Assembly (NCBI RefSeq): GCF_014066305.1
Contig: NW_023501091.1
Location: forward strand, 62,001 to 126,000
Direction of reading: 5' to 3'
Length of the DNA stretch: 64,000 bases
Source: Letharia columbiana
Taxonomy: Eukaryota > Ascomycota > Lecanoromycetes > Lecanorales > Parmeliaceae
Part shown: positions 17,487-59,040 of the stretch, piece after piece
Layout: the number at the start of each line of letters is the position of its first letter
Position numbering within the stretch: position 1 is the first letter of the stretch
Notes under the pieces: generated by a model
Databases searched by the model: none
Told to the model about the DNA's origin: nothing
Seen by the model: the letters and a program-made list of their open reading frames with translations, nothing else
Translations under genes and position numbers: made by a program

Positions 17487-17831
17487 GAGATAATATCCAT
17501 CGAAGTGAAGGGCTGTTAGGAGGGAGATAATTTCTCGAATAGGGCTTAGAAGAAGAGATGACATCCATCGAAGTAAAAGGGTAATTACTCGTTAGAAAAC
17601 ATATCTTGAAAATACGTATAAGTTATAGCTGCGAGCTACAATTTTTATAAGGCGAGTAAATCACGCTTCTACGATTGAAGAGTAAGGAGATTTTGTTTCG
17701 GGATAAAAACGGTCGATGATCCCCTGTACGCCAAAGATACGTACCCGTAATGGTGCGGCGGTCCCTAATAAAATTCCATCAACCCTATCCATTAGGAGAG
17801 ATGATGTCTATCGAAGCGAAAGGGTGGTTGC
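17487..17831 (+). repeat. Tandem host repeat of ~243 bp, left part
   Basis: A block starting GAGATGACATCCATCGAAG at 17555 recurs at 17798, giving a period of 243 bp. A third related start lies at 17487 (GAGATAATATCCATCGAAG), followed by a truncated unit. The second full unit is interrupted at 17831 by the outer LTR element and resumes at 23483. The repeats contain no open frame and diverge by many transitions. Confidence 0.75.
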
Positions 17832-20800
17832 TGTTGAGATTTGCTGCAGCACCTGTGTTGAAGCTACCCCATATGGTGGCAAATAGGGGTATAAGTAGCC
17901 CACTCAGCACTCTCATAGCTACCTAATCAATCAATAGGGAGTTTCAGACCACTTTTTTTTTTGCTGTGGAATAGTGGAATATTCAGACTTTCAGCTATGG
18001 AAAAATGGAATTATCTAGATTAGTCTAAATACCCCCACTATTAAATAGGCTTCTTTAATAAATTTATAATAAAACCGCTTAGTTATTACTCGAGAAAACC
18101 GTATAATCTTCCTTATACCTAATCCTTTCTACCCTAAATTCTTATACGGCTATACCTCGTTTATCGAAAAAGAAAATATATAGACGTAAGCTATTTAATC
18201 TCTTTCTTATTAGTTATATAAGACGCGGTTCTAGATATTATATAACGAGAAGATAGCTGATAATTTACGAAGTATTTATAGAGTAGCGTTATATAAAGCC
18301 ACGACTCTTTATATCTAAATTAGACTAGGCGAGTTATATTCTTTCTTAATATAACGACGCTCGATAGCGAGTCTTTACCTATATAAATTCTAAGAGTTTT
18401 TAGTATATTCTTTAACTTATCTCTTATAATCCTATATTTTATAATAACTTCTCTTATTAATAAGCTTTAATTAAGATATAACTTAAGATCGTATTATAGA
18501 AGCTAGAATATAATAAAAGCGTAAGTAATTATCGTTTCTTAATTAGTTAATAAAGCGTCTTAAAGAAATATATAAATAATTATACGAGACGAGTTATAGT
18601 AGCTCTATTTCAGCTATAAGAATAGTATATTCGATGATTCTCTAAGATAGAGCGACGATATAAGAGTATAGTAAATAATAATAGAAAAGACTTTCTCGAA
18701 GTAATAGAAAAGGCGGATAAAATAAATATCGTACTATTATATAAATCTAAAGACGTATTTAATAATAAAAATTTCTTTAATAAAAAGAAGAGATATATTA
18801 TCGATCTTTACGATATATATAACTCGTCGAAGAGATTTATCTATATACTTATCGACTTTTTAAATATTACTTATAATATAAGAGTATAAAGTTATACTCG
18901 ACTATATTAAGACTTAAAAGCTTACTTCTTAGTAAGATAGTATATACTCGTTAATAATATATACTCTAGTATAGAGTACTTAGTTCCGCTATATAAAGCT
19001 TTATATACGAGATAAAGAAGAATTTAAATATTTAATAGACGACTTTCCAGTATAAGAATCGATATCGAATATATATTCGATATTCTTAAAAGAGGAGATA
19101 AAAGAGTCTTATCGGGCTAAGATTAATCTTAAATACTAATAAGTAATACGAATATACGTATATATAAATTACTACCTACGTTATTCTTTATAATATTCTA
19201 TTAAATCTTAATAATATTTAGAATAAAGAAGAAGAATAATAAGTCGAAGACGATAACGACGATAAATATAATAATAAACTTATTAGTCTTATATCGCTAT
19301 AGCGATATTAGAAATATAATAAGAGAAAGATAATAAGAGTTATAGTTCTTAAAAAGACGTCTTAATTATATTTTTTTTTATATAGTAAGGAAATTAAAGT
19401 GGAGGTAGAGATACGGTCGTAAATAACGATATTTAATTCTTTTTAAAAGATATAGCGCGATAAATTAATATAGAATTTTAGTATTAGACTTAGCGCGAGT
19501 GCATTTAACGTATAAAATACACTTATTCTTAATAGAATACTTACGATATTTTATAACACTATTTTTTTATACTTTACGAAGAAGAAAATCTTCTCCGTAA
19601 GTATTTTCTTCTTCGACTATACTTTATATAAATCTTATATTTTTTTAAACGAATAGTAGAAGGAGATAATTAAATATTTATAAGAAATATTATAATCTTA
19701 GAGCGTAATATAGTATAAAATTACTATTAAATTAACTTAAGTAGAGTGCTATATATATATTCAACTTTACGTCTCTTCGTAAGTATTTTTAAAACTATTA
19801 TTTAACTCTATATTTAATTATTATTCGAGGATCTAAAAATATTATATCCTCGCTATTATTCTTTATACTTTCGTATTTTATATTAAAGATATAATACTCT
19901 CTTCTTATTTTTATTAATAAGGACTTTAGAGCGAGCTATTTTAGAGATATAATAAAGATTACGCTACTATCTTTTAAGCTTAAATTACTAATAGCGATCC
20001 TCTCTTTCATCTTTAATAAGCTCTCTTTAATGAGAGTTATTTATCTTCGCTTATTCGAATATCGATTCCGCTATAATTATTCGTTCTTTATTAGGTTTTT
20101 AGCGACTACGGCGAGACTTCTCAATATTATCGCTATTCGAGTCTTTCGATATAACTAGCCGTTTAACTCTCTTTAGAATATCTAATTTATCTTTCGCTTT
20201 AAGAGCTTTAAAAGCTTTAAGAGCTTACGTAGAGACTTATTCGAATATCTTTACGAAAGACTACTCTACGGTTTTAACTAAGGCTATCTTAGAGCGATAT
20301 AAGATGGGCGTTTTAGATAGCTAAGTAAGAGGCTTCGAAGAAGACTTATTAAGAATATCGTAGAGATCGATATCTAAAACTAAAAGAGGAGGAAGAATAA
20401 TCTTCTTAATTACCTACTCCGCTATCTTTATCTTATCTAAAGTCGTTATAGCTAAAGAATAAGCTAAATATTTAAAGTCCGAGTCTTCCGCTTTATTAAT
20501 CTCTTTCTCTTTCTTAATTATAGATTTTTTATATTCTTCTAACGCTTTCTTATTAATATTACCCTCTATATCTTTATTATTAAATTTATCTAGATTCGTC
20601 TCCTCGATAGTCTATTTATTACGCCGTAGAGATTATCTAGATTTAATAATAATTAAAGAATTAACGCCGGGATAATCGTTATAGACGCCTTCGAAGTTAT
20701 AGAATTATAAATACTTCTTAAGAATAAAGTTTTCTACTATAGTACTATACGGGCTATTTAAATTATACGTCTTATAAGTATTAGTATTAATATCTTAGCT

Positions 20801-20988
20801 AGACCCTTCGGCCTTTATTCTTATATTCTTATAGTTCTTAATTATAATATCTATTTTATTAGAGATCTTCTTTCTTATTATTAATAGCTTATTAATTAAT
20901 CTCGTATCTTTAAGTATTCTTCCCGCTATATTCGTATATATACTTATTATCTATATCTTATAGTTAACTACGACTTCTTTCTTATTAC

Positions 20989-21153
20989 TGTCAGGACCAG
21001 CATAGGTGCGATACCAGTATGGGTGAGGTAGAATAGGATAATAAGGCTACCGAACTATGTATGTAGGAAGGAGGCATGATATAGTAGGAGATGCCTCCGC
21101 CAAGGCCCGCTAGCCATAGGGCTGAGTGGTGTGTCAAGGGTACGCTCGTAACA
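20989..21153 (-). repeat. LTR of miniature element (3' LTR in element orientation)
   Basis: This 165-bp copy starts TGTCAGGACC and ends CTCGTAACA. It differs from its partner at 22136-22300 at three sites near its right end. Confidence 0.9.
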
Positions 21154-21641
21154 CTACCCCCCCCTCTCAATAGCCATGGCCCCCATGGCTGGTAGACCGG
21201 AGATGCACGCCCATCGCTTGCCCTGTGTCTCCAAACATCCATAGCCCGTGTAGGCCTCGACCGGAGAAGATTTGCCGAGGTGTAGCGGTATTGCCGGGCC
21301 GCATGCTGGTCTTGACTGTGCCATGCCTGCATTGTCCTTCAGAGATCCTGGAGATGTAGCCACATCTTGCCTGCGTACCAGCAAGATTCTCCGAATTCTT
21401 CTCCTTGCCCAGTCTTCTTGCCATAGTCCTTCGGTAGAATTGAAGAAAATCCAACGCATGCATGTGTCGTAAATCCCCCCCAACACCTGTTGGCAGCCTG
21501 GCCTGGGAGCTTCACTGTAGATTTGCCCTGTGTCTCCCATGCTCTTGCCATCAAAAATCCATCCTCCGTTCCATCTCGTCGATTCGTAGGGTTTGGTAGG
21601 AAGGTAGGTGATAAGAATTTGAATGTGTTGAATGCCATTTG

Positions 21642-21850
21642 GTAGCAGGCTCACTATGTAAATGCCGACATGCCATTTGGTAGCAGGCTTCACTATGTGT
21701 GTTGTCGACATGCTCAGTGAAGAGGTCGATATGTGTCGTTTCGGGGCTGTTCCCGTCGCCGTTGTAGCAGGCTCACTATGGTGTTGTCGACATGCTCAGT
21801 AAAGAGGTCGTACGTTTGCTGCCTTTGTAGCAGGCTCACTGTGTGTGTGG
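21642..21850 (+). repeat. Internal repeats GTAGCAGGCTCACTATG in the miniature element
   Basis: Four copies of GTAGCAGGCTCACTATG or close variants begin at 21642, 21680, 21764 and 21827. Two are followed by a shared TTGTCGACATGCTCAGT(G/A)AAGAGGTCG stretch. Such internal repeats are unusual in so small an element. Confidence 0.75.
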
Positions 21851-22135
21851 GGTTTGTGACGATTTCTTTCTATTATCAATTCGCTAGTCGTACGAATAGT
21901 CCCTGTGCCTTATTTATCCCTCGCCCACTGTTCTGGCGAGGCCGTTCCGCTGTCCCGTTAGGCTCTTTGGAATCGAGTTACCCGTCTGGTGGGCTTACCC
22001 AGGGATACGATGGCTCAACTTGGTTTCTTGCCAAAGCCCCTGCCAGCGCATTTCTTTGAATTCGTCCGCTAATTCGAATGGAGTGTGTCCGATTGCATTT
22101 CTCTTCGCCGGGTATACGAAGGAGCCTTATTATAA

Positions 22136-22300
22136 TGTCAGGACCAGCATAGGTGCGATACCAGTATGGGTGAGGTAGAATAGGATAATAAGGCTACCGA
22201 ACTATGTATGTAGGAAGGAGGCATGATATAGTAGGAGATGCCTCCGCCAAGGCCCGCTAGCCATAGGGCTGAGAGGTATGTTAAGGGTACGCTCGTAACA
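22136..22300 (-). repeat. LTR of miniature element (5' LTR in element orientation)
   Basis: This is the second 165-bp copy, followed directly by the ATTAC target duplication. At two of its three differences from the other copy it carries A where the partner has G and T where the partner has C, as RIP would produce. Confidence 0.9.
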
Positions 22301-22656
22301 ATTACGACTATAGAATTATTATATTATAAGATCGATATCTTACTTTATTTATTTAATAGCGAAAGCTCGAAGCGTTCTAAGAGCTTTATTTATAAAGACT
22401 TTCTTTCGCGATATTAAAGAGGGAAAGAAGAGATATTCGCGACGGCGTAGTAGAAAGGACGATAGAAAGAACGATAGAAAAGACGTAGACGTATAAGAGG
22501 TAATAGTAATAGGAGATAAATAGTAGTAGTAGTAATAAGAAGAAAGGCCTTCTAATTAAATAGATTTACTAAGAGATATAGAATATCGATACGAGAAATT
22601 CATCAAATAGGCCGATTTTCTTTATTAAAGATACCCTAGAATACCTTTAATAAATA

Positions 22657-22749
22657 GCGTGGATTTTTTAAATCGTGGGAAAATAAGCGATTTGCCACCA
22701 ACAGTTGGTGGTAAATTGCTTATTTTCCCACGATCTGAAAATTCCACGC
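22657..22749. repeat. 93-bp near-perfect palindrome at the TIR element's right end
   Basis: Arms of about 46 bp (starting GCGTGGATTTTTT and ending GAAAATTCCACGC) meet around the centre CCAACAGTTGG. Only a few mismatches occur. It sits just inside the right TIR and is less RIPed than its surroundings. It could fold into a long hairpin or cruciform. Confidence 0.85.
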
Positions 22750-22802
22750 TTAAAAAAAGTGGTCTGAAACTCTCTAATTAATTCTTTATATTATTTTTAA
22801 TA

Positions 22803-23356
22803 GATTATAAGACTCTCGCGCTATTATTACGTAGTTATTAATTATTAATTTAATCTTTAAGTATTAAGTCTAGCTTAGTTATAGTAACTTCGATAACTTT
22901 TATTACTATTATTACTTTTTCTCTCTATTTCTAATATTATTACTATTTTAGTATAGATTCTACTACGGCTACTATCTAAGTAAGAGATTAAAGCACGTAG
23001 AGATTATTTAATTATAAACTTTAAGCCTATATCTAAGTAATAGCTAGAGCTTTATTAGTCTTTCTATTAGTTAGTATCTAAGAAGTAACTAGAGCTTTAT
23101 TAGTTATACTAGTATCTAAGAAGTAGCTAGATTATTTAATATTAAAATCATTAATAAGCCTACTATAAGATAAATTAAATTCAATCTCTTTATTAAGTAA
23201 GTCGATATTTAATTCTTTCGATATTAGTTACTAGGTCTTAAGTCGTACTCGTATTACGTAAAGAGAAGATCGAGTCTATACTCGTATTATAATTAGTTAT
23301 TAAAGAGCTATTTCGTAGCATAGAGGTGTGGTTAATAATATTATATTATAAGAGTA
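22803..23356. other. RIPed interior of the outer LTR element
   Basis: This is AT-rich, frame-less DNA between the LTRs of the outer element. An imperfect internal repeat of the type AGTAACTAGAGCTTTATTAG recurs around 23027-23130. No gene is visible. Confidence 0.6.
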
Positions 23357-23482
23357 TATTAAGATTTACTATAGTATCTATATTAAAGCTATCTTATATT
23401 ATAATAGTAGATAGAGATATAAGTAGTCTACTTAGCACTCTCATAGCTATCTAATCAATCAATCCTTTATATATTTTCAACA

Positions 23483-23740
23483 GTTGCTCGTTAGGAAACG
23501 TATCTTGAAATACGCATAAGTTATAACTGCGAGCTACAATTTTTACAAGACGAATAAATCACACTTCCACGATTAAAGAGTGAGAACTTTTCATCTTGGG
23601 TGAACCGGTCAATAATCCCCTATACGCCAAAGGTACGTACTCACCAAAGGTACGTACTCACCAAAGGTACGTACTCACCAAAGGTACGTACTCACTCGTA
23701 ATAGTGCGGCGGACCCTGATGGAATTCTATAATGGGCGCC
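23483..23740 (+). repeat. Tandem host repeat, right part, with a 17-bp minisatellite
   Basis: This continues the 243-bp unit broken at 17831 and aligns with 17583-17790. Inside it, four exact copies of a 17-bp unit (CCAAAGGTACGTACTCA, 23627-23694) replace the single copy present in the left unit. Confidence 0.75.
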
Positions 23741-23783
23741 CATTCTATAATCCTTCCTGTAATACTGTTCGCTATCGCTACGC

Positions 23784-23831
23784 CCTGCACAACGACCTGC
23801 ACAACGCCCTGCACAACGCCCTGCACAACGA
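23784..23831 (+). repeat. 12-bp minisatellite, four units
   Basis: Four consecutive 12-bp units CCTGCACAACGA or CCTGCACAACGC. This lies in the 3' flank of the RhoGAP gene. Confidence 0.8.
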
Positions 23832-49910: not shown

Positions 49911-51822
49911 TCGTTAGGATGTCTACAATGAAAGGTAAGGATTTCGAAGACGTCACCTCTATCCAGTTGACCGTGAATGATAGATAGAGTCGAGTAAATC
50001 GCTCATGCGCGCCTTTAGGTTCCAATTTGCTCTTCTAAAGGCGCACAGTGGACCCGAGCTCCCTCTACCTGCACTGTCCTTCGCATTCGCTTGTCGACTC
50101 ACTCAATGTTACGTTTTCCCTTGCTTGTTGCATGACCAACTTCTCTCGTCCCGTCCCAGGATAGCAACTCCGAATAGACTCACTCGCTCATTTGCCTCGA
50201 AGGCACTCATCGTCGTCCAAAAGCTAGGGTAATTGCACTGTCCTGGACTATGAGAGAGGAAGAGCTTACCGCCTTATCCAAGTCAATCGCAGCCTGATAC
50301 TTACATTGAAAAGTGATCCTCAGACTTGACCGTAGAATCATCGACTCCCTGTATAAGGTATCAAGGGGCGAAGGGGCTGACTCTAGTACAGATTATGGGT
50401 GCATGCTGTTCCAAAAGCACAAACTTCAGGCCGGGGTACCCGTGCATGGCTCTTGGACTCTCGTTGAGAATACTACCAAACACTCTGTACTTGGGGGGCC
50501 ATGTCTACAATGCGGCACACAGTAGGCTTCCACGTATCTTGATCTATGCGAAATATAAGGGCTTTGTTTGGTCACGGCAGCATGAAGCAGGAGATGGGAG
50601 CGGAGAACAGAGAAGACCGAAGGTGCCCACCAGGAGGCCAAAACTACCAGAGACAATAAAGAAATTTTCATGTAGTGAGGTAACTATAGGGCTATGGTCC
50701 AATCTGGGGGGACTGGTGATCAATAGGAAATGTTGTAGTCTAGATCTCTGCAGTAGCCTTGTCCATTTGAGGAATGGATAAGTGGTCAAAGACAGTCAAT
50801 AGAGCACAAATATCAAGCAACTTGAACTTACCCATGTACCGATTACGCTGGCTGGACATTCGGTTATCGAAGTGTGTTCACACCAGATTTGGGAGTTTTC
50901 AGAGTGTCTTTACGGTTGTCAATCAGGAATGAGTTCCACGCTAAAATAGCGCCGGGAATCAGCAATAGTTACTCAGTTCTCCGCAAATCGCACTAAAGTT
51001 CATGAGAGAGGGGCTGCCACTGAGGTATGCTCTATACTGTTTTTGAGAGATCTGATTAATTTTTTCGAGCCGATCCTCAAGCGATCGAGACTCTTGGCTG
51101 CTAGAATATCGTGAAATCCTTTTCGGCTTTTTATTGTCTGCTACGTCCGTAAGGCGAAGATCTTTATTCCCCATTTTTTATTAAACTTTCGCATAGTGTT
51201 ATAACTAGCTACTCTAGTCTGACTATTTCGATACCGTTAGGCTTTGATTATTTAGCTGGATTTGATGGAATAAATGATAAAATTATTTGGGAGTTGAAGC
51301 CTAATTTTAGGTGTTTCCTGGATAGAAGACCTTCATATCGAGGCTCGCAGGGTGCCATTGTAACAAACATCTCTAATAGAACTCTACCTTGTGTACCACC
51401 TATATCAAATTACACATAGAGTCCAAACGTAAATATTCTACAAATTTGTAGATCGGGAGATGGAGTTGACGCCTTAAAGCAAATCGAAAGGAATTATTTT
51501 GTGGTTTTCGACAAAACCCCCAATTGGTTCTAGCGTGGAAAAGATTCACTCCGCCCACCCGGCACCAGTGGGGCCAAATTCTACAACAATCACATGTTGA
51601 ATCACTTCAGGTCTGATTCAGGGAGCAGATCCTCTTGTGAGCGAAATGAGTGATACCCGAGTGGTGCTGACAAGCTTCTCTTTGGCCTCACTTTTAGTAG
51701 TGTCGTTGGTCTTGGATTGGACCATCGCAAAATTGGCCAGACACTATCTCTCCGCCGAGTAGTCCTCTGAGCTGCACTTATACAACCCTGACGACACGTC
51801 TCTACGCCGCCTTCTTTGCGCC
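49911..51822. other. 1.9-kb region without a recognised gene
   Basis: A 151-codon plus frame (50326-50781) and several minus frames lack domains and overlap each other. From about 50960 to 51480 the DNA is AT-rich and may be an old degraded repeat. The minus frame 50959-51174 (with KRISRYSSSQESRSLEDRLEKI) looks faintly protein-like but is isolated. Confidence 0.45.
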
Positions 51823-53319
51823 ATGTCTTCTAAGAAAATGACCGCAAACCCTGTCCGGCCGGCTAGATACCGCCCTGGCAAGGCAGTCGCAGAGGAGCCA
51901 TCGTCTGACGAAGAAGACGCATCCGCGGGAGAAGAGGAGCAATCTACACCGGCAACCAGAGCACCAGCCCCGACGGCGTCATCGTTCCCTTCAGATGCTA
52001 CGAGAATCGCCGGTAGCCTCAAGAATGTCAACCTAAATGAGCGGAGACGGCAAGCTGCTGCGCAAGAAGCTGCACGTGTTGAAGCCGAAAAGGCGGCGCG
52101 GGTCGCAGAGGAAGAAGGCTTTGTGACCGAAGAAAGCGAGGAGCAAGAAAGCAGTGATGAAGAGTCGGGGCCCGGAAGCGGAAGTGACGAAAGCAGCAGT
52201 GAGGAGGAAGCTCCAAAGGTGCTCTTGCGGCCTACATTTATCAAGAAGGACAAGCGGAAAGACAGTGTTGTCGTCCCAGACACCAAGACTGAGGAAGACA
52301 CGTGGGCTGAAGAGCAAGCGAGGCGGAAAGAGAAGGCTGATGTCATGATCCAGGAGCAACTAGAAAAGGATGCTGCTGCTCGAGCTGCTGGAAAGAAGGA
52401 TTGGGATGACGATGAGATCGAAGAAGTTCAGCAGGTAGACGATACAGATGACCTCGACCCCGAGATCGAACGAGCTGCGTGGAAGCTGAGAGAGCTAAAG
52501 CGGGTGAAAAGGGAGAGGGAGGCCATCGAAATAGCTGAAAAAGAGCGAGAAGAGATCGAAAGGAGACGCAACCTTAGCAAGGAGGAACGGGATGCAGAAG
52601 ACAAGGACTTCATCGAGAAGCAGAAGGAAGAACAAGAAGGTAAAGGCAAGATGGGCTTCATGCAGAAATATTATCACAAAGGCGCCTTCTTTCAGGATGA
52701 TGCCAAAGCGGAAGGCCTGGATCGACGCGACATCATGGGTAGTCGCTATCAGGACGATTCGAACCGTGAGCTACTCCCGCAGTATATGCAGATAAGAGAC
52801 ATGACAAAGTTGGGAAGGAAGGGCAGGACTAAGTACAAGGATCTCAAGAGCGAAGATACTGGGCGATGGGGAACCTCCGAGGGAAGAGGTCCTCGAAAAG
52901 CCGATGGTACATTTGACGAGCGTTTTATGCCAGATCAAAGAACTGGAGGGAAAGGTGGCTCTGGAGCAAATACTATCCAAGTTGGAGAGCGAAGACGGCC
53001 GCCGGAGGGCGCACCAGAAGGTCCGCGTGGACGCGATAGAGGCGGACGCTTTGACGAGGGCGGGGGAAGGAGAAGCCCACCAAGACGGTCCTACTCACGC
53101 TCACAGTCACCACCCAGGCGGAGGGATCATTCTTACTCGAGGTCACCGCTACCGCGGAGAGATCGAGATAGAAGTCGGGGACGATCCTACTCATACTCTA
53201 GGTCACCTCCACCGAGGAGAGATCGATACCGCGACGAGCCAAGCAGACGAAAGCGGAGCCCTTCTCCAGATCAGGACCGCTATGGAAGCGACAAGCGGCG
53301 AAGAGTAGATGTCTCTTAG
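51823..53319 (+). CDS. MFAP1-like spliceosomal protein
   Basis: A single exon encodes 498 residues. The layout is that of MFAP1: RPARYRPGKA at the start, acidic Ser/Glu stretches, the conserved VLLRPTFIKKDKR, then a long charged helix (ERAAWKLRELKRVKREREAIEIAEKEREEIERRRNLS). The C-terminal signature KGKMGFMQKYYHKGAFFQDD follows. After residue 400 comes an RS/RG-rich tail (repeated SPPRR, SYSRSP). Known role: component of the spliceosomal B complex, binding Prp38. The RS tail is an addition to the metazoan layout and may mediate phospho-regulated interactions (inference). It ends only 160 bp from the convergent Trs31 gene. Confidence 0.92.
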   Translation: MSSKKMTANPVRPARYRPGKAVAEEPSSDEEDASAGEEEQSTPATRAPAPTASSFPSDATRIAGSLKNVNLNERRRQAAAQEAARVEAEKAARVAEEEGFVTEESEEQESSDEESGPGSGSDESSSEEEAPKVLLRPTFIKKDKRKDSVVVPDTKTEEDTWAEEQARRKEKADVMIQEQLEKDAAARAAGKKDWDDDEIEEVQQVDDTDDLDPEIERAAWKLRELKRVKREREAIEIAEKEREEIERRRNLSKEERDAEDKDFIEKQKEEQEGKGKMGFMQKYYHKGAFFQDDAKAEGLDRRDIMGSRYQDDSNRELLPQYMQIRDMTKLGRKGRTKYKDLKSEDTGRWGTSEGRGPRKADGTFDERFMPDQRTGGKGGSGANTIQVGERRRPPEGAPEGPRGRDRGGRFDEGGGRRSPPRRSYSRSQSPPRRRDHSYSRSPLPRRDRDRSRGRSYSYSRSPPPRRDRYRDEPSRRKRSPSPDQDRYGSDKRRRVDVS

Positions 53320-53479
53320 TCTGTCCATCGTGCTCTTAGACCATCATAATGCCAACCTTACGAACTCCGTGCAATGCATATGCCCATTGCAGCGCCACGC
53401 TATGCTCATGAATCTACTTCGCCTTTTTTCCCTCATTGAATGTCTTTCCCAGTTCCATCGACTTGCTTGTCTATGTTCC

Positions 53480-54274
53480 CTACTTCGTTCCCTCTCTCTT
53501 CACAACCTCTTCTTCAAATTTAATCAAGAACACCGTCTTCCCAGGCCACATTCCCCCCTCTTCCCCAGCATTGTGCGCGCTTACCCCTGCTTTACACCCA
53601 ACCCCACAACAAACCCCTTCTATTATCCCCGCAACGTACGCTGCACAATTCAATTGCGACATCTCCTTTGGCACTGATATGTACTGATTCACCAAGGGTT
53701 CATTATCTGAAATCATGTATTCATGGTTGTTGGTGGAGGAACTTTCAATGGAGTCTGCGGAGCGGGCAAAAAGGTGCCGCCAGAGAGTGTGGGCGATGAA
53801 CTGCAGGAGTGGGAGGATGCGAGTGGGACGGGGAGCGGGGTGGGTGGGGGTTGAGGAACGGAGAAGTAGAAGGGGGAGGAGGCGCTGGCCAAGAGGATAG
53901 CCTGCTTCGTTGAGTCTGTAACATGACTACGTCAGCTCAGTCCGGTCATCAATCTAGCTAAAGTGAAGCTGTTCGCCTGGGTGTCAATAAGTGACGAGAA
54001 ATCGTGAAGCATACCGTCGCTCCAGATCCTGTATCCCCGTCACCCTCTTCTGCGCATAACCAACCATCTCACCAAACAAATACGCAAAGCTTGCCCGACT
54101 CAGCTCGGCGGTACGTGTTCGATTGAGGTTCCGGTCGTAGATTGTTTTGCGGTTCGAGGGCGTGCGGAGTCCTGCATGGTGTTGCGGGGACTGCTGGGGC
54201 ATGCGCTGTGGTTGGAGGGGGGTGGACGAGACGATGGTTTTGGGCCCTTGTTGGGCTGGAGCTGCGGTTGTCAT
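53480..54274 (-). CDS. trs31: TRAPP complex subunit Trs31 (Bet3 family)
   Basis: Two exons (54274-54015 and 53915-53480) encode 231 residues; the intron is 99 nt. After a Gln/Pro-rich N-terminus the conserved core begins: RKTIYDRNLNRTRTAELSRASFAYLFGEMVGY, then AQKRVTGIQDLERRL across the intron, GYPLGQRLLPLLLLR and LLQFIAHTLWRHLF. It ends with MISDNEPLVNQYISVPKEMSQLNCAAYVAGIIEGV. Known role: Bet3-fold subunit of TRAPP, the Rab GEF and tethering complex at the Golgi. It diverges from the ubiquitin protease gene (312 bp) and converges with the MFAP1 gene. The C-terminal KREGTK tail is slightly longer than usual. Confidence 0.93.
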
Positions 54275-54586
54275 CGTGAGAGGTGCATCTGTGGTGGTGT
54301 GGAGGAAGTGTAGCTCTGGAGTTGGAGGTCACATTCAACAACGCTAGTGAGAAGGCACTCTTTGCGGAGCGCTCTCCGCTTGATCAACATATTCCTCTAC
54401 CTTTGACACTACTACCACCTTTTAGCATTATTGATCCATACTGGAAACTGTCATATCTCTCTCAAGTTAGCTCAACCCGAGATGTCTCCTACTACCCGCT
54501 TCCCGGTCTGACTCGGCTTCGCACCTTCCATAATTGTCTCGAATATACAGGCACCCCCCCCCATTTTGGCTCTTCACCGCTTCATA
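54275..54586. promoter_or_regulatory. Divergent promoter, trs31 / ubiquitin protease
   Basis: A 312-bp interval lies between divergent start codons. It is pyrimidine-rich toward the protease gene. No coding signal was found. Confidence 0.45.
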
Positions 54587-56986
54587 ATGGACTTCGCAGG
54601 TGGCTACCACGACCCAAGCCATCTGCAAGTTTTGCACCATACTTCACCTTATCCATCAAGAACATCATCTACCACAGCAGCATACGGTGTTCTCTTTCTA
54701 ATTTTCATCTATTACGTCCTCCAGTACCTTGACTACACAAATCTCCCAATGTCTGAGCTCCTTTGGAACTCCTTAGTCTATATAACCCCATCACAGATCT
54801 TATCGGCTCTGGACAGTGGCTTTGGAACAGCAATGGCCCACGATGCGCAAAACGACAGTACAGGTTTCAACTCAAAGGGTCATGCAAGCAAGAGTAACAC
54901 CATGAGACGGATCTTTGGTCTGGATGGTACAGGCATCTTGACCACAATCCAGCGGACGAGGACGATTTCGAACGTTGGCAGCGTCTTCAAGGCACGGCCA
55001 AGCAATAGTCTACCGGGTTTGGGCAATTGGGACAACTCTTGCTATCAGAATAGCGTTCTACAAGGTCTGGCTGCACTGGAGTCTCTGCCTGCTTTCCTGA
55101 GGTCGAATCCAGCAGGGACATCAGGACCTACGCAGAAAGCTCTGAATGAGACGATTGCCAGGTTGAACGATCCAGCCAATGTGGGAAAGACATTTTGGAC
55201 CCCTGCAGAGCTGAAGAGCATGAGCAGCTGGCAACAGCAGGACGCTCAAGAGTACTTTTCGAAAATATCGGATGAGTTGGAGAAGGATACTGCGAAGGCT
55301 GCGAATAAGAGACCTGGTAGTAGTGGACTGGAAACCTTGCTAGGTGTAGAACGGAGTGATACGCGGACGAGTTCGCCAGAGACGACCTCGGTCCCTCGGA
55401 CAAGCAGTATTGCTTCTTCTGAAGATACGATACATGTTGAACGGCTTCCCGAAGAAGTCGCATCTCTCATAGTACGAAACCCTTTGGAAGGCCTCCTGGC
55501 ACAGCGCGTTGGCTGCCAGCAGTGCGGCTACGTCGAAGGCTTGTCTCTGGTTCCTTTCAACTGCCTCACCGTCCCACTAGGTAGGCAATGGATGTACGAT
55601 GTTCGATCGTGCCTTGATGAGTACACTGCTTTAGAGCCAATCAACGGAGTCGAATGTGCCAAGTGCACGCTGCTGCGAGCCAAGCAGCAGATGGAGCAGC
55701 TACTTTCTAAATTACATCCAGACACGGGCGAAGGAGAACCAGCTCCAGATGAGGCGACAAAAGCTTTGCGACTCTCTTTACGAGAAAGACTCGATATCAT
55801 CACTCAAGCCCTGGAAGATGAAGACTTCTCGGATCAATTGCTGAAGAAATGTCAGATACCTTCGAACAAGCGTGTCTCAACGACGAAGACGCGGCAAGCA
55901 GTCATCGCTCGTAGCCCAAGTTCATTGGTTGTTCACGTCAATCGAAGCAACTTCGACGAGCTTACCGGCGTCCAGAGCAAAAATTCAGCCACCGTTAGGT
56001 TTCCTCAGCAGCTGGACTTGGCGCCTTGGTGCCTCGGTCGTGACCCAAGCTCGGATAACGAGGATGACAGTGTGGAAACGTGGAATGTCGATCCGTCTAA
56101 GTCTATGCTGTCGACCGAAGACAGCATTGAGAAACTTGACTTTGGGAAGATGTACGAGCTTCGAGCTGTTATCACGCACTATGGACGGCATGAGAACGGT
56201 CATTACATTTGCTATAGACGATCTCCGTACAGTTGCAAACCAGATGTATACACAAATGTTGAAAGCTCTACTACGCCTTGGTGGCGCCTCAGCGACGAGG
56301 ATGTGACAGAAGTTGACGAGGACACTGTTCTGGCGCAGGGAGGGGTGTTTATGCTTTTCTATGAGCAAGTGGCACCTCTTACGCCGGAAGAAGCGCCTAG
56401 GCCCGTTCTCGACGAGCCAAAAGCGGAGTTGCAGACCATAGCTGAAGAGGGCAAAGCTTTAGACCCCACTCAAGTCATTGATGTGCCAGAGATGTCGATT
56501 TGCGATGATAGCCAATCTGTAAAGCTGGAGCAAGAAGAGCTGGCTTCTGCATCTGCACATCCAGCAAACCTTGTCTCCCTTCAAGCGCCGACTGAAGGCA
56601 CAGGAAGTAATGCGCCTGTCGTCGAGAACCCAGAGCCTCAAGAAGCCCCGAAGGTCAATCCCGTCGCCACTATCCGTGACCCATCTCAACCTTTGTGCCT
56701 TGGGTCACCGAAGACTCCATTGCCGGCTGCTTCAGAAGCCAGGCCAAGCTCTCCAGCTCCAGCACCAGCACCACAGCCCAAAACAATTGCGAAAGTTGCG
56801 TCTCCTGAGCGCAAGGAGGTTGCAGTTGAGCCTGCAGAGCCTGCGACCCAAGTTGATACGCATAAGGAGAACCAGCCTGTCAGTCCTACGTCAATGCGAA
56901 CGGCAGGCCCTCGAAACAGCAGAAGCAGTGGAAGCAGAGCTGGGAAGGCGATGGGATCAGTGGCTGGATTTGTGCAGGCCAATTGA
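54587..56986 (+). CDS. Membrane-anchored ubiquitin C-terminal hydrolase (UBP1/USP30-like)
   Basis: A single exon encodes 799 residues from the ATG at 54587. A hydrophobic segment at about 31-49 (YGVLFLIFIYYVLQYL) anchors the protein. The cysteine box GLGNWDNSCYQNSVLQGL places the nucleophile at Cys152; QQDAQEYF follows. Zinc-finger pairs GCQQCG and CAKC lie in the fingers region. The His box GRHENGHYICYRR places His539, and WWRLSDEDV follows. Known role: removal of ubiquitin from substrates; the N-terminal anchor resembles yeast Ubp1 and mitochondrial USP30, so an organelle-membrane site is likely but not decided. The last ~180 residues are a disordered Pro/Ala/Glu-rich tail. Confidence 0.92.
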   Translation: MDFAGGYHDPSHLQVLHHTSPYPSRTSSTTAAYGVLFLIFIYYVLQYLDYTNLPMSELLWNSLVYITPSQILSALDSGFGTAMAHDAQNDSTGFNSKGHASKSNTMRRIFGLDGTGILTTIQRTRTISNVGSVFKARPSNSLPGLGNWDNSCYQNSVLQGLAALESLPAFLRSNPAGTSGPTQKALNETIARLNDPANVGKTFWTPAELKSMSSWQQQDAQEYFSKISDELEKDTAKAANKRPGSSGLETLLGVERSDTRTSSPETTSVPRTSSIASSEDTIHVERLPEEVASLIVRNPLEGLLAQRVGCQQCGYVEGLSLVPFNCLTVPLGRQWMYDVRSCLDEYTALEPINGVECAKCTLLRAKQQMEQLLSKLHPDTGEGEPAPDEATKALRLSLRERLDIITQALEDEDFSDQLLKKCQIPSNKRVSTTKTRQAVIARSPSSLVVHVNRSNFDELTGVQSKNSATVRFPQQLDLAPWCLGRDPSSDNEDDSVETWNVDPSKSMLSTEDSIEKLDFGKMYELRAVITHYGRHENGHYICYRRSPYSCKPDVYTNVESSTTPWWRLSDEDVTEVDEDTVLAQGGVFMLFYEQVAPLTPEEAPRPVLDEPKAELQTIAEEGKALDPTQVIDVPEMSICDDSQSVKLEQEELASASAHPANLVSLQAPTEGTGSNAPVVENPEPQEAPKVNPVATIRDPSQPLCLGSPKTPLPAASEARPSSPAPAPAPQPKTIAKVASPERKEVAVEPAEPATQVDTHKENQPVSPTSMRTAGPRNSRSSGSRAGKAMGSVAGFVQAN

Positions 56987-59040
56987 GCTTGGGTCGATGA
57001 AGGAGAAAGAGCAAATGATTCTTAGGTTTTGGTTTAGCACTAGCACACGAAGTCATTTCTGAGAGTTGTTCTTATAGGACAAACACGCTTGTATTGTTAT
57101 ACCCCACGGTAGGTATCAAACGCAGAAGAGATAATCCATCGATCGTATTCCAGCTTCCAATCGCTAATCCTGATAGATGTTCGTTTGATCATGCTATCTT
57201 TGTCCCAGTGTTTGTTGAACATCACCTTTAAGTCTCTACTTCATGTGAAATTGCCCATATTCACAACACCGTTTTGTGCTTGGTGAGATCGTATGCTTTC
57301 TATGTTTCATTGGTCTGATTCCCTTCCAAGAGCCCAAAATCAGGGGCGTCAACCCCCGCATCTATGGCAATTTCCATGCCTTCTACGTCTGACGGCTAGG
57401 AAAACCCCGGCTCATTTCCCCCAATTCTGACACCCTAATCCCCAACATCCAGCCTCGGCGTCGTCTCATCTTTTGTCCTCCCTGCCCAGCACAAGAAAGC
57501 TGGCTGGATATCCACGGCGTCGGACGCAGACCAACCACTTGAATTCCCCGGATGCCTGTCTGTCAGACACACCCGATATCGAAGGCTCTGCAAATACAGT
57601 CTCCACTCTCTCCCCCAACCAAATCCTGCACGCAGATCCAAAAAAGAAAAAAAAGGAAAAATCTAGATAATACGCGAGTCCACACACGCCCACGCCCACG
57701 CCCGAAACCTCCCCACCACCGGCCGCCATCCTCTCCCCATCCCCATCCAGCCCGCACCGGTCGTCCCCGGGCGCCCCACATCCGCAAAAAGACCCGCGCC
57801 ACCGACGGTCCGTCATCGCGACGGTGACGCCGCGGACGCCGGGGGCCGTTGAGGTTGTTTCCGCCGGCGGAGATCTCGACGGCGCGGCTGCGTTGTCGGG
57901 GTGGGGGGTGGGAGTGGGAATGCGGCGGTGGGGGGGGTGCGGATGGGGTTTTGGGGGCGGTGGGGACGGTTGTGGGGGGTGGGGAGGGTTGGGGGTGTGG
58001 AGTGGAGGGGTGGGGGGGCGTGGTTGGTGGGTGGGTGTGGAGATCGGAGGGAGGGGGGTTTGGGGGGGACCGGCGAGAGGTATTTGGGGGAAGGAAGGAA
58101 GGGGAGACGTGGGCGGTTGTGCGGGATCTGGGGAGGCAGGGGAGGGGGATCGTGTCCTTCTTCCGCGAGTGGGACGGAAGCCGAGCGAGTTTTCCAGACT
58201 CCGGGATGGCTTGGCTGAGACTTTTGACGAGTGAGGTGGTGGTACGTGCCAGCTGGCAGGTTTGGGGGGTGCGGTGGGGTTCTCCGTCCGTTGGGATGGG
58301 CGGTAAGAGACGGTGACGAACAGCGCTTGCTGTGCATCTGGAGCGATGGTCGAAGAAGGGGTCTTGAGTAAGCTCTCAATTGAGAGGACGGGGTCGTGCC
58401 ATTTCGGTTCGCGTGGTGCCTTGCTTTCTTTCGCTTTCCGATGAGGTTCTTGCAATGTTTCCGGTCAAACAGGCGAGTCATATGCGAGCTCGTGTCCCTT
58501 GATAAATGCTGTTTCACGCTTTTGTTGACTAGTATGTTTCGTTTCCTGAACCGATCCTGCCGACGGCAAGTCTCTAGCTTTGCTTTCTCCGTGTCTCGCG
58601 TTTTCTCCAAGCGCATTTTGCCTGGTGCCTTATTTTTGAACTAGCTGTTCACCTCTAGGATTGTTTACCCTAATTCTAAAAATCTCTTCAAGCGCTTTTC
58701 CCTAGTGCTTTGCAATCATGCGCCTACCTCCCTCCGTGAGAGGTACACCCTGAAGGTGGGGGTACACAGGGCATTCGGACCATTCGCATGCTTCTTCGTG
58801 GGCGCAAGCGGAATTGCATGTCCTTCCAGCCAACCGGTGCGTTGCGCTGTAATATGTACAGCCGCCACGCGGTCGGGGTTTTTTCGAGGAGACCCTGCAT
58901 TAAGTTCTGAGATATTATTACGAGAACACGAGCACAGTATGCCGACAGGCTCAGCTAGGCTTGGATTATAAGAGGAGGATATCCTCTTCGGCGGCAAAAA
59001 GTGGGATACGTACGACCCGGGGGCCTCGAAGTGGTCGATC
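56987..59040. other. 2-kb region with a G-rich tract and a doubtful Pro-rich frame
   Basis: The minus strand is open for 329 codons (57466-58455), giving a Pro/Ser/Arg-rich product. The first ~60 residues (PKWHDPVLSIESLLKTPSS) look more protein-like than the rest. The bulk comes from a G-rich plus strand (about 57895-58150), so it may be a by-product of composition. No domain is recognised, and I do not call it as a gene. The rest shows no gene. Confidence 0.4.

What the first reader, a model, noticed from the sequence alone, without database searches (positions are those of the whole stretch)
17487..23740. Three-layer transposon nest with every junction readable
Target duplications resolve the order of events: a 243-bp tandem host repeat, then a small LTR element (TSD GTTGC, ends TGTTGA/TCAACA), then a TIR element (TSD TA) inside its 5' LTR, then a second miniature LTR element (TSD ATTAC) inside that. 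Joining the flanks restores each older layer. Two of the three layers are non-autonomous LTR elements, which are rarely described in fungi.
Basis: seen in the sequence. Interest (0 to 1): 0.85.

Follow-up and report, generated by a model that had tools for sequence, protein, structure and literature searches.

The report
Three nested transposons, innermost self-primed
A fungal DNA region holds three jumping genes inserted one inside another, and the youngest is a tiny retrotransposon without proteins of its own that appears to start its copying with the front end of its own RNA, as a protein-coding relative in the same genome also seems to do.

Summary
The nest is real. A small LTR element (17832-23482, TSD GTTGC) sits in the second copy of a 243-bp tandem unit; a TIR element (17936-22775) lies in its 5' LTR; a second small LTR element (20989-22300, TSD ATTAC) lies inside that. 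Genome copies confirm the three sets of ends. Corrections: (1) The TIR element is a full-length, RIP-killed PIF/Harbinger transposon with a 3-bp duplication (AAT here), not TA. (2) Copies of the outer element carry a half-tRNA-iMet-type primer site beside the LTR, as a copia element of this genome does. (3) The inner element reads on the minus strand; its primer site is complementary over 11 nt to its own LTR, as in Tf1-type self-priming. A reverse-transcriptase-bearing relative with the same LTR, leader and polypurine tract has its own 11-nt pair, changed on both sides by matching indels: the best evidence for self-priming, and a likely helper. The inner element arrived after RIP, since both TSD copies carry a RIP-type change. 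Fungal TRIMs are already annotated, so the nest itself is ordinary; the self-priming miniature with its partner is the interesting part. In passing: an initiator tRNA gene apparently cut by three GT-AG introns.

The parts
17555..17797 (+). tandem unit, copy A (empty site for the outer element)
   Evidence: alignment with 17798-17831 + 23488-23740; only 2 matches in the genome search
17798..17831 (+). tandem unit, copy B, left part, ending in TSD GTTGC (17827-17831)
23483..23740 (+). right TSD GTTGC (23483-23487) and right part of copy B; a 17-bp word repeated about 4 times at 23627-23695
17832..23482 (+). outer element (LTR1), 808 bp of its own sequence, copia-type non-autonomous LTR element
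   Evidence: ends and TSD; 35 genome matches; of 6 solo LTRs measured, 4 have exact 5-bp TSDs and 2 have 4 of 5
17832..17935 (+). 5' LTR of the outer element, left part (continues 22779-22802)
22803..22814 (+). primer binding site of the outer element, decayed (GATTATAAGACT; GGTTATGAGCCC in full-length relatives L065 and L067)
23357..23482 (+). 3' LTR of the outer element, 126 bp, AT-rich
17936..22775 (+). TIR element, PIF/Harbinger, 3.52 kb of its own sequence, RIP-degraded inside; TSD AAT 17933-17935 and 22776-22778
   Evidence: relative L080
17936..17959 (+). left terminal inverted repeat
   Evidence: pair I5
22752..22775 (-). right terminal inverted repeat
   Evidence: pair I5
20989..22300 (-). 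inner element (LTR2), 1312 bp, self-priming-type non-autonomous Gypsy derivative, not RIPped; TSD ATTAC 20984-20988 and 22301-22305
22136..22300 (-). 5' LTR of the inner element (in its own sense)
22185..22195 (-). predicted self-primer AGCCTTATTAT = expected 5' end of the RNA, LTR position 106; TATA-like word at about 22226-22230
22123..22133 (-). primer binding site ATAATAAGGCT, complementary to 22185-22195
21154..21172 (-). polypurine tract, TATTGAGAGGGGGGGGTAG
20989..21153 (-). 3' LTR of the inner element (in its own sense)

Best explanation
Three successive insertions. First, a copia-type non-autonomous LTR element, with a primer site matching half of the initiator tRNA, entered copy B of a 243-bp tandem unit. 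Second, a full-length PIF/Harbinger transposon entered its 5' LTR with a 3-bp duplication. RIP turned the Harbinger interior and the right part of the outer element into AT-rich DNA (the outermost 100-140 bp of the Harbinger and the first 103 bp of the outer LTR were spared). Third, a 1.3-kb non-autonomous Gypsy derivative, on the minus strand, landed in the dead second ORF of the Harbinger. Inferred mechanism of the inner element: a protein-coding relative that shares its LTR, leader and polypurine tract supplies the proteins. The RNA starts at LTR position 106; its first 11 nt fold back on the primer site just after the LTR and are used as primer, as in Tf1. Shown: anatomy, ends, TSDs, order relative to RIP, partner and paired changes. 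Inferred: helper in trans, RNA start and priming.
For: Junctions. Inner family: exact 5-bp TSD at the predicted ends in 16 of 27 distinct rows (29 rows, 2 of them repeats of the same element), near-constant sequence after the 5' LTR and a G-rich polypurine tract. Primer site and LTR complementary over 11 nt; 11 nt or more in 10 of 20,000 dinucleotide shuffles. LTR positions 105-119 are the only 11-mer run conserved in 52 of 52 clean 5' LTR instances; they were selected by primer site, not by primer. 34 of 34 further copies, chosen by exact primer site, keep AGCCTTATTAT. Partner at C116: 146 of 165 LTR positions identical, leader shared, own pair ACCTTAGTTAT/ATAACTAAGGT with matching indels on both sides; 11 nt or more in 5 of 20,000 shuffles. 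Of 16 pairs of a reverse-transcriptase hit with an LTR2-type PPT-LTR junction 0.5-7.5 kb downstream, 14 are on the same strand (13 different hits), 8 at 3.40-3.46 kb; upstream 4 same-strand and 2 opposite. Harbinger: PF13359 E 1.3e-25; window copy full length with 636 C>T/G>A, 18 reverse and 49 transversion differences and 29 stops in ORF1. After RIP: L080 reads ATTGC where both TSD copies in the window read ATTAC; RIP index -0.36 for the inner element against 1.21 to 1.53 in the Harbinger arms and outer internal region. Outer element: GGTTATGAGCCC abuts LTRs of two full-length relatives and of a copia element, L083.
Against: No RNA start site, cDNA or mobility data. The predicted stem is only modestly better than shuffles (z -2.19, 4 of 200 as good), and the TATA-like word is absent in some copies. 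Co-changes between primer and primer site among RIPped copies (8 of 14 copies with GACT) are explained by RIP at CpC and count for nothing. The paired indels rest on one partner copy. Partner clade and integrase were not tested. No coding element with the outer element's LTR was found. Empty sites in other isolates or species could not be looked for.
Confidence: 0.85

Rival explanations
1. The inner element is primed by a tRNA like a classical TRIM, and the 11-nt complementarity to its LTR is chance in AT-rich sequence.
For: 11-nt matches do occur in shuffles (10 of 20,000), and a single site cannot exclude chance; the site was not compared with all nuclear tRNAs.
Against: The sequence after the LTR does not begin with TGG. 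The coding partner has a different 11-nt pair, changed by matching insertions and deletions in LTR and primer site. The primer stretch is the most conserved 11-mer run of the LTR.
Confidence: 0.08
2. The TIR element is a Tc1/mariner-type element with a TA duplication, as the first reader's TSD suggests.
For: TA lies at nearly every end.
Against: The base next to TA is also repeated in 8 of 10 end pairs. The full-length relative encodes DDE_Tnp_4 (PF13359) and a second ORF; 79 of 83 relatives in the protein search carry PF13359 and one is named HARBI1.
Confidence: 0.02
3. The inner element is clean because it escapes RIP, not because it came after RIP.
For: Many clean copies stand in AT-rich DNA.
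Against: Other copies of the family are heavily RIPped (for example L013, L030, L167-L170). The RIP-type change in both TSD copies of the window shows that RIP had already hit the target.
Confidence: 0.15
4. The direct repeats of the inner element are a segmental duplication or a composite DNA transposon, not LTRs.
For: No coding sequence is conserved in it.
Against: TG..CA ends, 5-bp TSDs in 16 of 27 distinct rows, primer site and polypurine tract at fixed places, and the same LTR on an element with a reverse transcriptase hit.
Confidence: 0.01

Closest known systems
Self-priming LTR elements of the Tf1 kind (Tf1, Tj1, Maggy, Skippy, Boty, Grasshopper)
   Same: Primer site next to the 5' LTR complementary to an 11-nt stretch of the LTR expected at the RNA 5' end; the coding partner has an RVT_1 hit.
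   Different: The window element has no gag-pol. Clade membership of the partner was not tested. The list of self-primed elements is from PMC6934838 (passages) and PMC4600332 (passages); the clade name Tf1/sushi and the 11-nt length in Tf1 are recalled.
TRIM (terminal-repeat retrotransposons in miniature)
   Same: Short LTRs, no conserved coding sequence, primer site and polypurine tract. The outer element fits in size (808 bp).
   Different: The inner element is 1312 bp, and its primer site appears to pair with its own LTR, not with a tRNA as the definition quoted in PMC6934838 asks.
Copia/Ty5-type half-tRNA-iMet-primed elements
   Same: The outer family's primer site GGTTATGAGCCC abuts the LTR and matches the anticodon arm of the initiator tRNA; a copia element of the same genome (L083) has the same site.
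   Different: No coding copy with the outer LTR was found; the half-tRNA mechanism is recalled, not tested. Donnart et al. (PMC5445492, passages) give a tRNA-Lys-type site for FunCo1 and no primer site for fungal GalEa.
PIF/Harbinger and its MITEs
   Same: DDE_Tnp_4 transposase, second ORF, TIRs, 3-bp duplication, short copies with ends 517-620 bp apart.
   Different: Target word is ANT rather than the TWA that I recall as usual; the second ORF has no Pfam match.

Membership tests
TRIM (outer element) | under 1000 bp, LTRs of about 100-250 bp | tested here: met
   808 bp, LTR 126 and 128 bp, from the coordinates; full-length relative L065 about 0.93 kb
TRIM (outer element) | primer site complementary to a tRNA | tested here: met
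   GGTTATGAGCCC in two full-length relatives against GGGCTCATAACC in the initiator tRNA at C10; decayed in the window copy
TRIM (outer element) | no coding capacity | tested here: met
   longest ATG ORF in full-length relative L065 97 aa; not scanned against Pfam
TRIM (inner element) | under 1000 bp | tested here: not met
   1312 bp
TRIM (inner element) | primer site complementary to a tRNA | tested here: inconclusive
   site pairs with its own LTR instead; not compared with all nuclear tRNAs
Self-priming Gypsy (inner family) | primer site complementary to the RNA 5' end, within the LTR | tested here: inconclusive
   complementarity and paired indels shown; the RNA 5' end itself is predicted only
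Self-priming Gypsy (inner family) | Gypsy-type reverse transcriptase in the autonomous member | tested here: met
   RVT_1 hits, 8 of them 3.40-3.46 kb before LTR2-type 3' LTR junctions; shared LTR read at C116 only; clade not tested
Tf1/sushi clade, chromodomain integrase | phylogenetic placement and chromodomain | not tested
   partner's coding region was not fetched
PIF/Harbinger (TIR element) | DDE_Tnp_4/HARBI1-type transposase | tested here: met
   L080 ORF1 PF13359 E 1.3e-25; 83 relatives found, 79 with PF13359
PIF/Harbinger (TIR element) | 3-bp target duplication | tested here: met
   8 of 10 end pairs, the window among them
PIF/Harbinger (TIR element) | second ORF with Myb/SANT-like domain | tested here: inconclusive
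   257-aa ORF present, no Pfam match at E 0.01

The most novel reading that the evidence does not exclude
The inner family and its coding partner are a natural primer/primer-site swap: each lineage has its own exactly matched 11-nt pair, changed by insertions and deletions on both sides. If the primer RNA is copied into the new primer site at every round, an indel in the LTR is written into the primer site automatically. Such pairs would then drift in lockstep and could be used to sort miniature elements to their helper lineages.
Probability: 0.5. Interest if true: 0.65.

Novelty: new variant of a known kind. Interest (0 to 1): 0.5.

Why it matters
Nests of this kind give a relative clock: here the duplicated target word shows directly that the innermost insertion came after RIP. 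The miniature element with its coding relative gives two different, exactly matched primer/primer-site pairs within one family, which makes the self-priming model testable by comparison alone. In the paper searches made I saw no description of a self-priming miniature LTR element; I saw listings and a few passages only, and the library holds open-licence papers only.

Tried and rejected
Co-variation of primer and primer site among inner-family copies looked strong at first: of 82 instances, 8 of 14 with primer site GACT have AGTC in the LTR, against 2 of 61 with GGCT (one of these with a further change) and 1 of 7 with AAGCT. The test was entered as 2 of 62, one too many; its p value (6e-6) is therefore slightly off. 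I rejected the co-variation as evidence, because in the 8 co-changed copies RIP has changed 68% of CpC sites.

Preference of the inner family for RIPped DNA looked absolute at first (mean flank GC 0.231 over 29 rows). But 22 of 40 random genome samples are also under 35% GC. The samples came from the 44 contigs whose length I knew, 28.4 of 52.2 Mb. The separate sample of 34 sites gives 29 of 34 under 35%, Mann-Whitney p 0.03 (200-bp flanks against 300-bp samples): a weak preference only.

Search for coding partners by primer site failed; search by the polypurine tract-LTR junction succeeded. The C116 partner's primer site differs, which explains the failure there. Both scans list only part of what they found: 100 of 110 primer sites, 100 of 176 junctions, 150 scored of 250 reverse-transcriptase candidates (RVT_1) and 150 of 222 (RVT_2). 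For the outer LTR, 34 of 35 places were entered. The reversed-pattern control for the primer-site pattern at 3 mismatches is high (45 against 110), so I rely on the 62 exact matches. L081 and L082, two genome stretches with reverse-transcriptase hits, showed no usable LTR pair in the part fetched. An ORF of 185 aa in the inner element has no Pfam match and is broken or shifted in the other copies compared.

In one search the script demanded exact LTR ends, so 8 of 16 fetched outer-element loci were measured and 8 were dropped. The 52 instances include a few copies seen twice through overlapping loci, and instances under 88% identity were left out.
Full report
The genome is an unnamed assembly of 52.2 Mb in 161 contigs; the window is C56:62001-126000. 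That it is a fungus is inferred from its RIP and its element families. In a sample of 40 random stretches of 300 bp, 22 have under 35% GC, so about half of the genome may be AT-rich, probably RIPped DNA. The DNA on both sides of the nest has 52-53% GC, and the window holds 8 ATG ORFs of 350 aa or more.

Layer 0. The 243-bp unit at 17555-17797 aligns with 17798-17831 joined to 23488-23740, apart from a 17-bp word expanded to about four copies and small differences. A genome search gives only these two places, so this is a local tandem duplication, made before the first insertion because copy A is empty.

Layer 1. The outer element runs from 17832 to 23482 with TSD GTTGC. Its 5' LTR is split by layer 2; joined, it aligns with the 126-bp 3' LTR. 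Genome copies fix the ends. Of 16 loci fetched, 8 had LTR ends exact enough for the script: 6 look like solo LTRs in the stretch fetched, 4 with exact and 2 with 4-of-5 TSDs; of two full-length copies, one has an exact TSD (GTTTC) and one 4 of 5. Directly after the LTR of the two full-length copies stands GGTTATGAGCCC. The same site directly follows a 152-bp LTR of a copia element in this genome (L083). Of 49 places with the site and LTR end (3 for the reversed pattern), some lie 3.6-6.1 kb upstream of five RVT_2 hits on the same strand; controls are 2 upstream same-strand and 2 downstream opposite-strand pairs. The site is complementary to the anticodon arm of the initiator tRNA. That such elements use half a tRNA (copia, Ty5) is recalled knowledge. 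None of the 150 scored RVT_2 hits lies 0.5-7.5 kb from the 34 outer-LTR places entered, in the three arrangements counted, so a coding partner with this LTR was not found.

Layer 2. The TIR element 17936-22775 is full length: without the insert it aligns end to end with L080 (C25), a 3.56-kb copy, at 78% identity. L080 has a 403-aa ORF with PF13359 DDE_Tnp_4 (E 1.3e-25) and a 257-aa ORF on the other strand without Pfam match; a protein search finds 83 relatives, 79 with PF13359 and one named HARBI1. This is PIF/Harbinger. Ten end pairs were read, the window among them; in 8 the 3-bp word ANT stands on both sides, and the window has AAT/AAT. By hand, agreement of the middle base in 8 of 10 has a probability near 4 in 10,000 if only TA were duplicated. 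In six of the ten pairs the ends are 517-620 bp apart, MITE-like. The window copy differs from L080 by 636 C>T/G>A, 18 reverse transitions and 49 transversions, with 29 stops among 404 codons of ORF1 and 11 among 257 of ORF2. That is RIP. Its first 100 bp and last 136 bp show no RIP index (-0.25 and -0.17).

Layer 3. The inner element 20989-22300 is 1312 bp with 165-bp LTRs and TSD ATTAC. Copies in the genome show that it reads on the minus strand: TGTTACGA..TCCTGACA, then TTATAATAAGGCTCC after the 5' LTR, and a G-rich polypurine tract before the 3' LTR. Of 29 rows (27 distinct elements) 16 distinct ones have an exact 5-bp TSD at the predicted ends. I found no ORF kept open across copies. In L080 the target reads ATTGC; both TSD copies in the window read ATTAC. 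So a RIP-type change was there before the insertion. The RIP index of the inner element is -0.36 against 1.21 to 1.53 in the Harbinger arms and the outer internal region.

How the inner element works. Two nucleotides after its 5' LTR begins ATAATAAGGCT, which pairs exactly with AGCCTTATTAT at LTR position 106; 10 of 20,000 shuffled LTRs reach 11 nt or more. A TATA-like word lies about 35 nt upstream of that position in the window copy and several others, but not in all. Folding the 81 nt between gives the 11-bp stem, z -2.19, 4 of 200 shuffles as good. In 52 clean instances the only fully conserved 11-mer run of the LTR is 105-119. Co-changes in RIPped copies are not evidence, since RIP here also hits CpC. 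The decisive comparison is with a coding relative. 176 genome places match the polypurine tract-LTR junction with up to 3 mismatches (14 for the reversed pattern); 100 of them are listed. Of 16 pairs with a reverse-transcriptase hit 0.5-7.5 kb upstream of such a junction, 14 are on the same strand, 8 of them at 3.40-3.46 kb; in the other direction there are 4 same-strand and 2 opposite-strand pairs. At one of these, C116, two short stretches were read. The LTR shares 146 of 165 positions, and the leader is shared. The pair there is ACCTTAGTTAT in the LTR and ATAACTAAGGT behind it: against the inner family one base is inserted and one removed in the LTR, each with its complement in the primer site (shuffles 5 of 20,000). 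RIP makes transitions, not paired indels. This is what Tf1-type self-priming predicts. Self-priming as such is known from Tf1 and proposed for Tj1 (PMC4600332, passages). That the coding relatives supply proteins in trans is inferred.

Comparison with print. TRIMs are described as under 1 kb with a tRNA-complementary primer site (PMC6934838, passages). The outer element fits; the inner one does not in size, and in primer type it looks different. Fungal TRIMs are annotated elsewhere (PMC4646964; PMC13041039; passages). In the searches I saw no self-priming TRIM, but only listings and passages were read.

A lead outside the finding. Looking for the initiator tRNA, I searched for a 17-nt anticodon arm with up to 2 mismatches: 2 matches, against 8 for the reversed pattern. 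One (C4) is not tRNA-like. Around the other, C10:345841, the gene reads as four exon pieces separated by three GT..AG introns of 50, 49 and 57 nt, each with CTAAC before the 3' end. The joined 72 nt are called tRNA-Met (cat) by ARAGORN, the genomic stretch is not. A genome search with the joined 72 nt finds only this place. Two other tRNA genes looked at, on C72 (Ser) and C45 (Leu), have single introns that ARAGORN reads. Introns at these places with mRNA-type signals in a tRNA gene are unusual as far as I know; searches (listings only) showed no title or abstract start that describes it. Splicing was not tested.

Noticed in passing
L181:1377-1604 (G000:C10, about 345717-345944): Initiator tRNA-Met gene in four pieces, split by three GT-AG introns (50, 49, 57 nt) with CTAAC branch-site-like motifs, followed by a T-rich stretch; the only place found in the genome search with the joined 72 nt.
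   Followed up: partly
G000:C116:about 51785-58790 (L182, L183): Coding relative of the inner element with the same LTR, leader and polypurine tract and its own matched primer pair; only its two ends were read.
   Followed up: partly
window 22656-22750: Near-perfect 95-bp palindrome (47-nt arms, 89% complementary) at the right end of the Harbinger copy; similar sequence stands near the ends of some other copies, such as L034.
   Followed up: no
L004, L009, L012: Inner-family arrays: L004 has three LTRs, L009 and L012 two internal regions, each flanked by one outer 5-bp duplication.
   Followed up: no
LTR2 family, many loci: Distances from primer site to the next polypurine-tract junction on the same strand are mostly 0.83-1.35 kb, with a second group at about 1.7-3.7 kb and three outliers (0.27, 6.5, 7.7 kb), so longer forms of the inner element may exist.
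   Followed up: no
L030, L167-L170, L172-L174: RIP-type change in the LTRs of these copies hits CpC (68%) nearly as much as CpA (85%), CpG (13%) and CpT (18%) far less.
   Followed up: partly
G000:C94: tRNA clusters repeated at an offset of about 90.5 kb on C94 (63 of 1723 candidates scored); looks like a mitochondrial contig assembled more than once round (inference).
   Followed up: no
window 23627-23695 and 23780-23830: Short tandem repeats of 17 bp and 12 bp (about 4 copies each) at and next to the right flank of the nest.
   Followed up: no
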